Assembly: GCF_002499975.2 (NCBI RefSeq)
Contig: NZ_CP052766.1
Coordinates: 434,001 to 498,000, forward strand
From: Alteromonas pelagimontana
Lineage (GTDB): Bacteria; Pseudomonadota; Gammaproteobacteria; Enterobacterales; Alteromonadaceae
Length of the DNA stretch: 64,000 nucleotides
Direction: 5' to 3'
The translations under genes were made by a program, and so were the position numbers. The notes under the pieces are model-generated. The model was not told where the DNA came from. It made no database searches and was given only the letters and a program-made list of their open reading frames with translations. Positions 42,028 to 46,145 of the stretch are shown in pieces; the first letter of the stretch is position 1, and the number at the start of each line of letters is the position of its first letter.

Positions 42028-42505
42028 TTAAAGGGGCTCAAACCATGGCTGTTGATGTAAAAAATCAGTCAATGCTGTGCGGAATGCTTTAGCTCTGGCA
42101 GATATAGTTTTTTGATAAGGCCATACCAGATAAAGCTTTCTGGCAGGCCCTTGCCACTCAGGCAGCACATGTGTCAATTCACGCTTTTCTATAGCCTCAT
42201 ACACCATGCTCAAGGGTAATAACGCGATACCTGCCCCCGCTTTAGCAAGATTGAAATTTACATTCATATCATTGCAAAAATGCGTATGAGTTTTCAGCAC
42301 CTTAAACTGAACTGTCTCATCGTTTATATTTTGAAGAGTCCAGTCACTGAAAATATCAGCTGCAATTGTTTTTGAAAAAATCAGTTCCTGGGGTGTTTGA
42401 GGAAAGCTTTCTTCGTCACGAATATTTCCCACAAGTATGGGAGTAATACTACCAAGGCCGGTTTGAATGAGTGAAGAATCTTCCTGTTGCCCTGAACATA
42501 AAGCA

Positions 42506-42514
42506 ATATCAGAA
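42506..42514 (+). repeat. Target site duplication, left copy
   Basis: ATATCAGAA, directly adjoining the IS left end; matches the right copy exactly. Confidence 0.92.
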
Positions 42515-43759
42515 CAGGGCGGGATTCTACTTCGCACATTATTTAACCAAAAAGCAACTCTGTTCTGAATTCCGGACTCCACAGAGCAGCTCGTCGTTTC
42601 CCTGCGATGCTATCCTTCTTGCCCATATGTTGCCGTATTAAGCTAAGACATGCCCGGTTGAATAACGCCAGGTGTGTAGCACCTGTTGGGTCACCGATCT
42701 TAAGCTCGTCTTCTCGAAACACCACATCCAAAACCCAATGCAGTTGATTCTCCACAGCCCAATGATCCCGCACGATACCGGCAGCCTGCTCGGCATTAAC
42801 GGGCAATGAGCTTGCGTACCAGCGTGATGAGCAAGCAGTGGTGTTTTTCACACACCGTTCGCTAGCGACCTCAATGAAAGTCTGGACATGCGGCCATTTT
42901 TGCTTGAGTTCTTTGGGTAATTTGGCCTTCATTTGCATCACAGTACGCTTTTCCTCACGTCCGTGCCCGCGGTTAATCTGCTCGAAAGTGGCCAGTTCCG
43001 GATTTTCATACTGTTCGGCGAAACAAGTTTTTACATGCTGACTTAAAGTAGGCTGATTTCCCTTTAACTGGATCACAAAATCGCCTTTACCTTTAATCAC
43101 CGCTTTCATGGTGTCGGCCTGGCAGTGTAATGCATCCAGTGTGACCACCGCATTGTCCAGTGTGAGTGCGGCAATAACCTGACGCGCCACGTCCCCCTCA
43201 TGTCCTTTACTGTCTGAGCTCCCTTGATAAAGCGCAACGCCATTACCTACATCAAATGCACTCACCACATGTAGGGCTTTGCTGGCATCGTCGCGCCAGG
43301 CTCCGCGCATCGTCTTACCGTCCAACGCAATAACTTGTTTCCCTTGTTGCTTACGCTGGTCGTTAATCCAGCCAAATACAGCTTTCAGCAACACTTGAGT
43401 ATCCAGCGCCTTGATAATGGTAGCGATACAGTGCCGTCTTGGAATACCATTAGCAAATCCACGATGTTGACGCAGCCATTCAAGCTGTAAGTCGCCAAAT
43501 TGCTGAATAGACTTCCATCCATCAGCACCGCTGAGCACGGCAGCTAGAGTGAGGAAAATGACATCAATCAGGTCATGCTTTTTATTGATATCGTTGCGGT
43601 GGTCGGTGATGATTTCCAAGTGTTTTAATAAGCTCATGTCAGTCTTTAATGAAATGAAAACTGATCTGATCGTACAAATCAACCAGAGTTCCATGGTGCT
43701 TATACCAATAGCTGATCAATAAAGCGGTTGCTATACCAAAAAGTTAGGATCCCGCCCTG
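42515..43759 (-). mobile_element. ISAs1-family insertion sequence, complete
   Basis: 1245 bases. The ends are CAGGGCGGGAT (42515-42525) and its exact inverse ATCCCGCCCTG (43749-43759), with partial pairing further in. Both sides carry the same 9-base ATATCAGAA duplication (42506-42514, 43760-43768), within the 8-10 bases usual for ISAs1 elements. One intact transposase gene lies inside. Family named from the transposase and the CAGGG ends; a specific IS name needs a database. Confidence 0.93.
42543..43637 (-). CDS. ISAs1-family transposase
   Basis: 364 residues from ATG 43637 (a frame extending to 43694 includes untypical sequence). The N-terminal DDE_Tnp_1-associated region has IITDHRNDINKKHDLIDVIFL, then AVLSGADGWKSI. 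The DDE catalytic core has IALDGKTMRG, a VTLDALHCQ aspartate and a VENQLHWVLDVVF-type glutamate block. This is the H-repeat/ISAs1 transposase. It looks full length with no frameshift, so the element may be active. Confidence 0.93.
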   Translation of the reverse strand: MSLLKHLEIITDHRNDINKKHDLIDVIFLTLAAVLSGADGWKSIQQFGDLQLEWLRQHRGFANGIPRRHCIATIIKALDTQVLLKAVFGWINDQRKQQGKQVIALDGKTMRGAWRDDASKALHVVSAFDVGNGVALYQGSSDSKGHEGDVARQVIAALTLDNAVVTLDALHCQADTMKAVIKGKGDFVIQLKGNQPTLSQHVKTCFAEQYENPELATFEQINRGHGREEKRTVMQMKAKLPKELKQKWPHVQTFIEVASERCVKNTTACSSRWYASSLPVNAEQAAGIVRDHWAVENQLHWVLDVVFREDELKIGDPTGATHLALFNRACLSLIRQHMGKKDSIAGKRRAALWSPEFRTELLFG

Positions 43760-43768
43760 ATATCAGAA
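43760..43768 (+). repeat. Target site duplication, right copy
   Basis: ATATCAGAA, directly adjoining the IS right end; pairs with the copy at 42506. Confidence 0.92.
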
Positions 43769-44274
43769 CTCTTCGACAGCACACTTTCATTGGGATCAGC
43801 TAGTATAATATTCAACGCTATCTGCGGATATGCCGCAGAAAAGGTTTGCCAAAAATTATTTAACGGCCCACTTCCAATATTAATAGGTGCCACCACTTTT
43901 AATGGACCTTCAGGGTCATTTATTGTGGCATCAAGATTGATTAATTTTTGGCTTAAATCGTTTACAGTGTCTGCACACTCACGATAGTAATCATTGCCGC
44001 TAGATGTCAGCATTAAGCCTTTATTACTGCGATGGAACAGCTCAACTCCCAAACTTTTTTCTAACTCAGCAATCCTTCGCGACACTGTCGCTATTGTCAT
44101 GCTAAGACATTTGGCGGCTCCCGAAAAACTCCCTTTTTCAGCAGCAGTAATAAAAATTCGCAGATTATCCAGCATTGCTTCTCATATTTGCAAACGGGCT
44201 TTTCATTATGAACCATACCGGAGAAATATGTAAACGCGTAACATCGCCCTTCTATAATAAGAGGAGAGAAAGAA

Positions 44275-45391: not shown

Positions 45392-45418
45392 TATAGTGCC
45401 TGAGTGACAGGAAGTCAC
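45392..45418 (+). promoter_or_regulatory. Candidate promoter/operator of bacteriocin-like locus
   Basis: A -10-like TATAGT (45392-45397) is followed by an inverted repeat GTGAC-5-GTCAC (45404-45418), ending 24 bases before the start codon of the first peptide gene. The -35 is poor. The repeat could be a repressor site overlapping the transcript start. Inferred from layout only. Confidence 0.35.
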
Positions 45419-45442
45419 GGTTTTAGAAACTAAGGACATACT

Positions 45443-45682
45443 ATGACAAATCAGACAGATTTATTTGAGCTGACTGGCGAAGAAATGCAGTTGGTCACAG
45501 GTGGGAGCGCTCTTGCTGCAGGAATAAAGGGCGGCATGACTGGCGCTGGTGTTGGAGGTGCTCTGGGAACAGGCGGCGCATTGATGGCCGCGGCGAACGG
45601 TGCCCGATGGGGCATGATTGGTGGCGGTGCAGGTGCGTTTGTCGGCGCGGCAGTCGGCCTTATAGTTTACGCCTACTATTAA
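45443..45682 (+). CDS. Double-glycine-leader glycine-rich peptide A (class IIb bacteriocin-like)
   Basis: 79 residues. The leader of 21 residues ends in LTGEEMQLVTGG, the double-glycine type cut by C39-peptidase ABC exporters. The mature peptide of 58 residues is hydrophobic and dense in Gly/Ala with several GxxxG steps, one Trp, and a VYAYY tail, as in two-peptide pore-forming bacteriocins (lactobin/cerein type). CTAAGGAC precedes the ATG. The second peptide gene follows after 11 bases. No exporter gene is nearby. Target range unknown. Confidence 0.78.
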   Translation: MTNQTDLFELTGEEMQLVTGGSALAAGIKGGMTGAGVGGALGTGGALMAAANGARWGMIGGGAGAFVGAAVGLIVYAYY

Positions 45683-45693
45683 GGAGTGAACAA

Positions 45694-45903
45694 ATGAGAA
45701 CACTGTCGCATCATGAAGTTGAAGAAGTATCCGCGGGCTCAATGGCGTCTAAGGCGGCAATGGGCGGGTTAGACGGTTTCGCCGGCGGATTTACCCTCGG
45801 CGCCTCGGTAGGTTTTGTTGGCGGTCCAGCGGGAGCATTAGTAGGTGGTATGATTGGCGGGATGCTTGGCACTATTGGCGGCGTCTACGTCAGTTTCCAC
45901 TAG
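45694..45903 (+). CDS. Double-glycine-like-leader peptide B (class IIb bacteriocin-like)
   Basis: 69 residues from ATG 45694 behind a strong AAGGAGTG. The short leader is LSHHEVEEVSAG, a variant ending in AG in place of GG. The mature part of about 54 residues is Gly/Ala-rich with many GxxxG repeats and one hydrophobic helix. Similar to peptide A in composition but not in sequence, as for paired class IIb peptides. Confidence 0.75.
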   Translation: MRTLSHHEVEEVSAGSMASKAAMGGLDGFAGGFTLGASVGFVGGPAGALVGGMIGGMLGTIGGVYVSFH

Positions 45904-45980
45904 TCACTTCCGCTCATTTTTCAAGTTCGTATATAGGCGGGCGTACTTTGCCCGTCTACAACGTAATTAAGGTACGGGAG

Positions 45981-46145
45981 ATGACTGATAAAAAACTTTT
46001 TCGGCCCAGTTCATTAGTCTGCTTCATTTGCATCATTCCTGGAACAGTCAATTTACTGACTGAAAACATAATGATTAAAGCCATTGCATTAGCCTTCATC
46101 ATTTTATTATTGGGATTCGGCTGGAAAATTGACAAGCAAAGATGA
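45981..46145 (+). CDS. Two-helix membrane protein, candidate immunity protein
   Basis: 54 residues from ATG 45981, with TAAGG eight bases upstream. Two transmembrane helices (about 11-25 and 31-48) and basic ends. It follows peptide B after 77 bases. Small membrane proteins in this position serve as immunity proteins of class II bacteriocins; here that is inference. No homologue recognised. Confidence 0.6.
   Translation: MTDKKLFRPSSLVCFICIIPGTVNLLTENIMIKAIALAFIILLLGFGWKIDKQR

What the first reader, a model, noticed from the sequence alone, without database searches (positions are those of the whole stretch)
45392..46145. Orphan two-peptide bacteriocin-like locus with candidate immunity gene
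Two adjacent small genes encode double-glycine-type leaders (one GG, one AG variant) followed by Gly/Ala-rich peptides full of GxxxG steps, the features of class IIb two-peptide bacteriocins. A two-helix membrane protein follows, and an inverted repeat lies before the first gene. Such pairs are best known from Gram-positive bacteria; in this Gram-negative context the locus has no C39 exporter nearby, so it would rely on an exporter elsewhere. It sits in the variable segment between prs and rplY.
Basis: partly seen in the sequence, partly recalled or inferred. Interest (0 to 1): 0.75.

Follow-up and report, generated by a model that had tools for sequence, protein, structure and literature searches.

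The report
Orphan two-peptide bacteriocin cassette in Alteromonas
A marine bacterium carries a three-gene unit for two small glycine-rich killing-type peptides and a likely protector, without its own export pump; related species carry similar units in other places, and they probably rely on a pump encoded far away.

Summary
pepA (45443-45682, GG leader), pepB (45694-45903, AG leader) and ORF3 (45981-46145, small membrane protein) lie between prs and rplY, with no exporter nearby. The inverted repeat is chance-level. The genus is Alteromonas.

The unit is a conserved cassette. An A-B locus with an ORF3-type gene lies elsewhere in genome G179; G177 has A-B plus another membrane protein; G100 has one peptide that looks like an A/B fusion, plus an ORF3 homologue. 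G115 and G071 carry similar pairs flanked by a membrane-fusion protein and a C39 exporter.

Leader peptides away from exporters are common here: none of 38 leader hits in 59 Alteromonas genomes lies within 10 kb of a strong C39 match (only 14 share a contig with one). The window's genome holds seven leader peptides, including a second pair, and one C39 exporter, in a genus-wide graspetide locus whose leaders share the recognition pattern.

Best reading: a two-peptide glycine-zipper bacteriocin resembling Cdz and class IIb, ORF3 as immunity, exported in trans by that exporter. Killing, immunity and export are inferred. It fails curated cut-offs and the Cdz survey's 10-kb exporter rule: a new variant of a known kind.

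The parts
45443..45682 (+). pepA: 79-aa precursor; leader 45443-45505 ends LVTGG; mature part 58 aa, 31% Gly, 26% Ala
   Evidence: counterparts in G179 and G177 (z 5.8 and 4.9, 0 of 2000 shuffles each)
45694..45903 (+). pepB: 69-aa precursor; leader 45694-45738 ends EVSAG (atypical AG); mature part 54 aa with 11 GxxxG steps
   Evidence: homologues in G179, G177, G100
45981..46145 (+). ORF3: 54-aa small membrane protein, candidate immunity gene
   Evidence: hydropathy; homologue downstream of the G100 peptide gene (z 6.6, 0 of 2000) and in G153 (z 5.2, 0 of 2000)
45934..45958 (+). strong stem-loop between pepB and ORF3, no T-run after it; possible expression-tuning element
   Evidence: segment 45904-45980 z -4.19, 0 of 200 shuffles fold as well
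45404..45418 (.). short inverted repeat GTGAC-N5-GTCAC upstream of pepA; present but at chance level

Best explanation
A mobile-looking, exporter-less two-peptide bacteriocin cassette. pepA and pepB would be made as precursors, recognised by their double-glycine-type leaders, cleaved and exported together by a C39-peptidase ABC exporter with its membrane-fusion partner. That machinery lies about 2.28 Mb away in a locus kept across the genus, whose own cargo is a graspetide. The mature Gly/Ala-rich peptides would insert by glycine-zipper helices into the membrane of competing, probably related, bacteria; ORF3 in the producer's inner membrane would give immunity. Shown: genes, leaders, conservation of the cassette in other places, one C39 match in the genome, shared leader pattern. 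Inferred: export by that exporter, pairing, killing, immunity.
For: A-B order plus an ORF3-type gene in G179 at another locus: A z 5.8, B z 17.5; A-B gap 10 bp there, 11 bp here. A-B pair in G177. G100: one peptide whose first half matches G179 pepA (z 8.0; G179 pepB z 0.3) and second half G179 pepB (z 14.3; G179 pepA z 0.4), followed by an ORF3 homologue. pS 0.63-0.82 against pN 0.30-0.46 in 11 gene pairs. Similar pairs flanked by MFP and C39 exporter with a 132-137-aa hydrophobic protein in G115 and G071; the same pair without exporter in G116. Own genome: a leader model holding only pepA and pepB from this genome found five further leader peptides (E 2e-5, 0.008, 0.026, 1.2, 1.9), including an adjacent pair plus a 59-aa hydrophobic protein. 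One C39 match in the genome; Cys, His and Asp expected of the active site are present by eye. Of the 60 strong C39 matches in the other genus genomes I fetched 40 with flanks: all 40 match the own ABC and MFP, 37 of 40 lie near hslU or the amidohydrolase, 31 of 40 have an ATP-grasp match. 32 graspetide precursors and 7 own leader peptides share V at -4 (30 of 32; 7 of 7), L at -12 (26 of 32; 7 of 7) and GG, GA or AG at the end. Pneumococcal ComAB and BlpAB share substrates, directed largely by residues at -15, -12, -7 and -4 (PMC7018657, passages); the microcin V exporter is reported as promiscuous (PMC10231218, abstract).
Against: The pepB leader ends AG, not GG; processing may be poor, although a VSAG leader recurs in another own peptide and in one graspetide precursor. 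ORF3 matches the G179 protein poorly when compared directly (z 1.3, 222 of 2000) and is linked only through G100 and G153; G177 has an unrelated protein there (z 0.1). pepA and pepB match no curated family at cut-off. Composition shuffles do not keep the glycine periodicity, so z values between Gly-rich peptides are inflated: A177 against B177 gives 7.3. The leader model is not very sensitive or exact: a hit at E 0.31 that I dropped ranks above two that I kept, and the same model missed the G179 pair. [quoted passage not shown] G100's exporter is not at the hslU locus. No expression, export or activity data; no structure could be predicted.
Confidence: 0.62

Rival explanations
1. A decaying relic: the cassette lost its exporter, the pepB leader drifted to AG, and it is now inactive or kept only for ORF3 immunity.
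For: Decay is visible elsewhere: MFP remnant with a stop beside an own leader peptide (L217), C39 fragment with a stop beside a G185 peptide; G153 keeps the ORF3 homologue with only a Gly-rich tail upstream, by eye.
Against: Both window frames are intact with upstream ribosome-site-like sequence; protein-level constraint in pairwise comparisons; intact cassettes without a nearby C39 exporter recur in several species.
Confidence: 0.15
2. Exported glycine-zipper peptides with a non-killing role, such as signalling, surface aggregation or biofilm; ORF3 is a receptor or accessory protein.
For: GG peptides can act as signals or in biofilms (PMC7018657, passages); CdzC forms surface aggregates (PMC5380434, passages).
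Against: Sporadic distribution, fast divergence and an adjacent small membrane protein fit bacteriocin-immunity units better; among the ORFs next to the genes I saw no intact sensor or regulator (LysR halves lie upstream).
Confidence: 0.15
3. pepB with ORF3 is a single-peptide microcin and pepA is a separate or dispensable neighbour.
For: G100 has one peptide gene plus the ORF3 homologue; most Cdz-like systems have one toxin gene (PMC5380434, section 13).
Against: The A-B order is kept in G179 and G177, and the G100 gene looks like an A/B fusion rather than pepB alone.
Confidence: 0.2
4. Chance ORFs or parts of a longer gene.
For: Low-complexity Gly/Ala-rich sequence; a longer ORF frame (98 aa, ATG 45607) covers pepB.
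Against: Homologues start at the same leader, with stops between genes, in other genomes.
Confidence: 0.02

Closest known systems
Cdz system (CdzC, CdzD, CdzI; Caulobacter crescentus; PMC5380434)
   Same: Two adjacent small glycine-zipper precursors, small membrane immunity protein, type I export, Gram-negative.
   Different: cdzAB lie beside cdzCDI; here no exporter lies nearby. CdzI has three predicted TM segments, ORF3 about two. The paper's survey dropped hits without a type I system within 10 kb, so loci like this were excluded. CdzC and CdzD sequences were not compared here.
Class IIb two-peptide bacteriocins of Gram-positive bacteria (lactobin/cerein families)
   Same: Adjacent leader-bearing peptides with GxxxG steps and one candidate immunity gene.
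   Different: No match of the window peptides to TIGR03949 or PF10439; Gram-negative host with a membrane-fusion protein in the export system.
Class II microcins (microcin V, E492)
   Same: MRTL-like leader (resemblance to microcin V recalled), C39 exporter plus membrane-fusion protein in the genome.
   Different: pepB gives only 12 bits against PF17508 (cut-off 27), pepA none; two peptides; exporter not in the cluster.
Pneumococcal blp/com shared GG-peptide export (PMC7018657, passages)
   Same: Leader-bearing peptides exported by an exporter not necessarily beside them.
   Different: Gram-positive; there the sharing is shown by experiment, here it is inferred.

Membership tests
Cdz-like systems (criteria in PMC5380434, section 13) | Precursor of 60-151 residues | tested here: met
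   79 and 69 aa
Cdz-like systems (criteria in PMC5380434, section 13) | Leader ending in G followed by G, A or S | tested here: inconclusive
   pepA GG; pepB AG, or GS only if the register shifts by one
Cdz-like systems (criteria in PMC5380434, section 13) | Glycine zipper flanked, not interrupted, by proline or charge | tested here: met
   By eye on the sequences: K and R flank the pepA zippers, P flanks the main pepB zipper
[quoted passage not shown]
   pepA ends LIVYAYY, pepB ends VYVSFH: no charged tail
Cdz-like systems (criteria in PMC5380434, section 13) | Type I secretion genes within 10 kb | tested here: not met
   No exporter match in the 64-kb window at E 1e-3; the genome's one C39 match is about 2.28 Mb away
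Cdz-like systems (criteria in PMC5380434, section 13) | Contact-dependent killing, immunity by the small membrane protein | not testable with these tools
   Needs competition assays
Class IIb bacteriocins | Two adjacent leader-bearing peptides with one immunity candidate | tested here: met
   order kept in G179
Class IIb bacteriocins | Match to curated families TIGR03949 or PF10439 | tested here: not met
   No hit of either window peptide at E up to 1; some relatives match them below the cut-offs
Class IIb bacteriocins | Synergy of the two peptides | not testable with these tools
   Needs purified peptides or gene deletions
Class II microcins (PF17508, NF051486) | Match to the curated families | tested here: not met
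   pepB 12 bits against cut-off 27 for PF17508; no NF051486 hit for either window peptide
Class II microcins (PF17508, NF051486) | C39 exporter plus membrane-fusion protein available in the genome | tested here: met
   L002 7021-9222 and 9222-10475
DUF5325 (PF17259) for ORF3 | Pfam gathering score | tested here: not met
   16.2 bits against 25

The most novel reading that the evidence does not exclude
Alteromonas runs a hub-and-spoke peptide arsenal. One core-genome C39 exporter, kept for a conserved graspetide beside hslVU, serves as the shared port for a scattered and rapidly changing set of exporter-less bacteriocin cassettes. These can be gained, lost, and fused from two peptides into one as units of under 1 kb.
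Probability: 0.45. Interest if true: 0.68.

Novelty: new variant of a known kind. Interest (0 to 1): 0.55.

Why it matters
Surveys of Gram-negative bacteriocins that require a transporter within about 10 kb, as the Cdz survey did, miss such cassettes. If one exporter serves many scattered cassettes, bacteriocin content can change by very small gene transfers, and the producer repertoire of a marine genus is larger than exporter-guided mining shows. The A, B and A/B-fusion forms give a natural test of whether two-peptide bacteriocins need both partners.

Tried and rejected
Family libraries gave no assignment for pepA, pepB or ORF3. A viral-contig scan with pepA, a genome-contig scan with the pepB alignment and a plasmid tblastn with pepB found no relative. 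The inverted repeat was rejected as signal, and no shared operator was seen upstream of the own leader-peptide genes: only A/T runs recur. No exporter remnant was found in the window at E 1e-3. Many hits of the four-row pepB profile across the order (75 of 394 genomes) lie inside longer frames or cover only part of the profile; I followed G116, G447, G514, G430 and G012 and did not count the rest as relatives. The hits of pepA in G129 and G117 cover only about 30 residues in frames over 400 aa and were dropped. The ORF3 hit in G136 lies antisense to a long helicase-like ORF (my reading) and was dropped. G023 and G050 hits of the ORF3 profile were not examined. In one search I dropped the hit at 1181743 (E 0.31), which covers 10 of 16 positions. 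A link between C39 loss and loss of leader peptides is too thin: the two genomes without a strong C39 match (G148, G184) have no leader hit at E 0.01 or better, against 26 of 57 others. My first distance count left out the C39 matches weaker than about 4e-7; one search repeats it with all rows. My first leader scan around the exporters had no positive control; one search repeats it with controls. Structure prediction never ran.

Literature: no paper on double-glycine bacteriocins of Alteromonas appeared among the rows listed; these are the top rows of longer result lists in one open-access library, for these terms only. What I saw: PMC5380434 passages and section 13; PMC9746304, PMC7018657, PMC8939145 and PMC8386478 passages; PMC10231218 abstract and outline; all others search listings only.

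Full report
Setting. The window is G000:C1:434001-498000 of a 4.31-Mb single-contig genome. Its genus is Alteromonas: several same-genus handles have contigs of the same length as named Alteromonas records, for example 572791 bases for A. ponticola and 969036 for A. lipolytica.

The observation. pepA has a leader ending LVTGG; pepB has MRTLSHHEVEEVSAG, with AG at the end. The mature parts are 31% Gly each; pepB has 11 GxxxG steps, pepA 9. Among window ORFs of 40-130 aa no other combined leader pattern and Gly/Ala-richness. ORF3 has two hydrophobic stretches. The inverted repeat before pepA is chance-level. A strong stem-loop without a T-run lies between pepB and ORF3 (z -4.19).

The site. prs-rplY is a variable interval: 142 to 5787 bp in the 69 of 80 named loci where both ends could be measured. 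No locus held a comparable peptide pair; the scan's only hits were five short ORFs of 39-45 aa, four of them overlapping the rplY end.

Relatives. The first searches sampled few genus members: pepB found a same-genus homologue in G100 and leader-bearing peptides in G115, G071 and G057. A genus-wide search of 59 genomes with the two-row pepB profile gave matches in 10 genomes; those in G148 and G157 are partial and lie in frames of about 250 aa. Among the other eight, G179 has a pepA counterpart, a pepB counterpart and a 53-aa ORF3-type gene, with gaps of 10 bp and -1 bp. G177 has A, B and an unrelated 80-aa hydrophobic protein. G181, G192, G189 and G187 have another peptide pair followed by a hydrophobic-looking protein of 110-114 aa. 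G100 has one peptide: its first half matches G179 pepA (z 8.0, 0 of 2000 shuffles) and not G179 pepB (z 0.3), its second half matches G179 pepB (z 14.3) and not G179 pepA (z 0.4), which suggests a fusion. G153 keeps an ORF3 homologue with, by eye, only a Gly-rich tail upstream. ORF3 itself matches G100 (z 6.6) and G153 (z 5.2) but not G179 directly (z 1.3); G100 against G179 and G179 against G153 are strong (z 20.1 and 15.9). Shuffles keep composition but not glycine periodicity, so z values between Gly-rich peptides are optimistic. In 11 gene pairs pN is below pS (0.30-0.46 against 0.63-0.82), with synonymous sites near saturation.

Paired peptides with their exporter. In G115 and G071 two adjacent leader peptides and a 132-137-aa hydrophobic protein sit between a membrane-fusion protein and a C39 ABC exporter. 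The same pair and third protein recur in G116 with no exporter match in about 9 kb on either side. So forms with and without an adjacent exporter coexist in the family.

Leader peptides away from exporters. A 16-position leader model run over 59 genus genomes gave 38 hits at E 0.01 or better, in 26 genomes. None lies within 10 kb of any of the 61 strong C39 matches (57 genomes); two lie within 10 kb of one of the 53 weaker rows, a fragment with stops in G185 and a 314-aa frame in G129. Caveats: many genomes are drafts, and only 14 of the 38 hits, seven of them in the window's own genome, are on a contig that also holds a strong C39 match; the model includes seven leaders of the window genome; and it is not very sensitive, missing both G179 peptides. 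Of 29 hit loci printed (E up to 0.02), 27 show a small ORF of 42-93 aa with the leader near its start, one of them interrupted by a stop; two were mis-assigned by the script. Around the G179, G177, G181, G192, G189, G187, G153 and G100 loci, about 6-10 kb on either side, tblastn found no membrane-fusion protein and no C39 domain, only ABC transporters without one in four of them.

The window's own genome. A leader model containing only pepA and pepB from this genome found five further leader peptides: at 2536566 (E 2.1e-5; beside an MFP remnant with a stop and a CAAX-type protease), 1676632 (E 0.008; again a VSAG leader), an adjacent pair at 3949230 and 3949374 (E 0.026 and 1.2) followed by a 59-aa hydrophobic protein, and 1666707 (E 1.9). 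One more hit, at 1181743 (E 0.31, 10 of 16 positions), was dropped although it ranks above two that I kept; those two have full leaders at the start of small ORFs. The two members of the second pair resemble each other (z 8.2).

The exporter. The only C39 match in the genome is a 733-aa ABC exporter with a 417-aa membrane-fusion protein, at C1 about 2754020-2757474. Beside it lie a LuxR-like regulator (by eye), an ATP-grasp enzyme with an MvdD-like domain and a 64-aa precursor ending in YYITLAIGEDGGKLPDLETF. I fetched 40 of the 60 other strong C39 loci of the genus with flanks: all 40 match the own ABC and MFP, 37 of 40 lie near hslU or the amidohydrolase, 37 of 40 have the LuxR-like match, 31 of 40 the ATP-grasp match and 26 of 40 the precursor match. 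No ORF of 30-140 aa in those loci reached 12 bits with the leader model, which found its targets in five of six control loci. The 32 precursors recovered (some by weak matches, E up to 0.58) share with the seven own leader peptides V at -4 (30 of 32; 7 of 7), mostly L at -12 (26 of 32; 7 of 7) and GG, GA or AG at the cleavage site. G100's exporter is elsewhere and has no ATP-grasp or hslU match. Work on pneumococcus shows that such residues direct export and that exporters can share substrates, but also that some do not (PMC7018657, passages). The microcin V exporter is reported as highly promiscuous (PMC10231218, abstract).

How it most likely works. Leader-directed cleavage and export through the resident C39 exporter, joint action of the two glycine-zipper peptides on a target membrane, and protection by ORF3. 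The genes and their conservation are shown; export, pairing, killing and immunity are inferred.

Known or new. The nearest described system is Cdz, a Gram-negative two-protein glycine-zipper bacteriocin with a small membrane immunity protein (PMC5380434, passages and section 13). Its survey found two adjacent toxins in 14% of candidates and dropped hits lacking a type I system within 10 kb, a criterion this locus fails. I did not compare CdzC or CdzD sequences. Curated microcin and class IIb families are not met. I therefore call it a new variant of a known kind: a conserved two-peptide cassette that occurs without an exporter.

Noticed in passing
L002 5170-10475 (G000:C1 about 2752169-2757474): Graspetide-type cluster (ATP-grasp with MvdD-like domain, 64-aa precursor, LuxR-like regulator, C39 exporter, MFP), found beside hslU or the amidohydrolase in 37 of 40 fetched genus loci; 32 precursors with a TLAIGEDGG-like core.
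   Followed up: partly
L218 8922-9446 (G000:C1 about 3948921-3949445): Second exporter-less pair in the same genome: 49-aa and 41-aa leader peptides plus a 59-aa hydrophobic protein.
   Followed up: partly
window 42543-43694: Transposase (DDE_Tnp_1 with DDE_Tnp_1_assoc; ISAs1-like by recall) lying between what look like two halves of a LysR-type gene (42028-42582 and 43744-44175, minus strand; by eye).
   Followed up: no
window 45934-45958: Strong stem-loop without T-run between pepB and ORF3; no second copy in the window or in L002, L217, L218, L219 at up to 4 substitutions.
   Followed up: partly
L217 8127-9665 (G000:C1 about 2536126-2537664): Orphan 46-aa leader peptide between an MFP remnant with a stop and a CAAX-type protease gene: looks like a decayed bacteriocin cluster.
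   Followed up: partly
L221, L222, L223: More distant genomes of the order carry 2-3 adjacent leader peptides (one matches DUF5862 above cut-off); by eye no exporter among the ORFs listed within about 8 kb.
   Followed up: no
L325 / L316 1489-1635: G153 keeps an ORF3-type gene with only a Gly-rich tail upstream: possible immunity gene without its toxin.
   Followed up: partly
L239 1489-1970: G129 has a 60-aa leader peptide followed by a 91-aa hydrophobic ORF, 4.5 kb from a weak C39-like match in a 314-aa frame: another candidate toxin-immunity unit.
   Followed up: no
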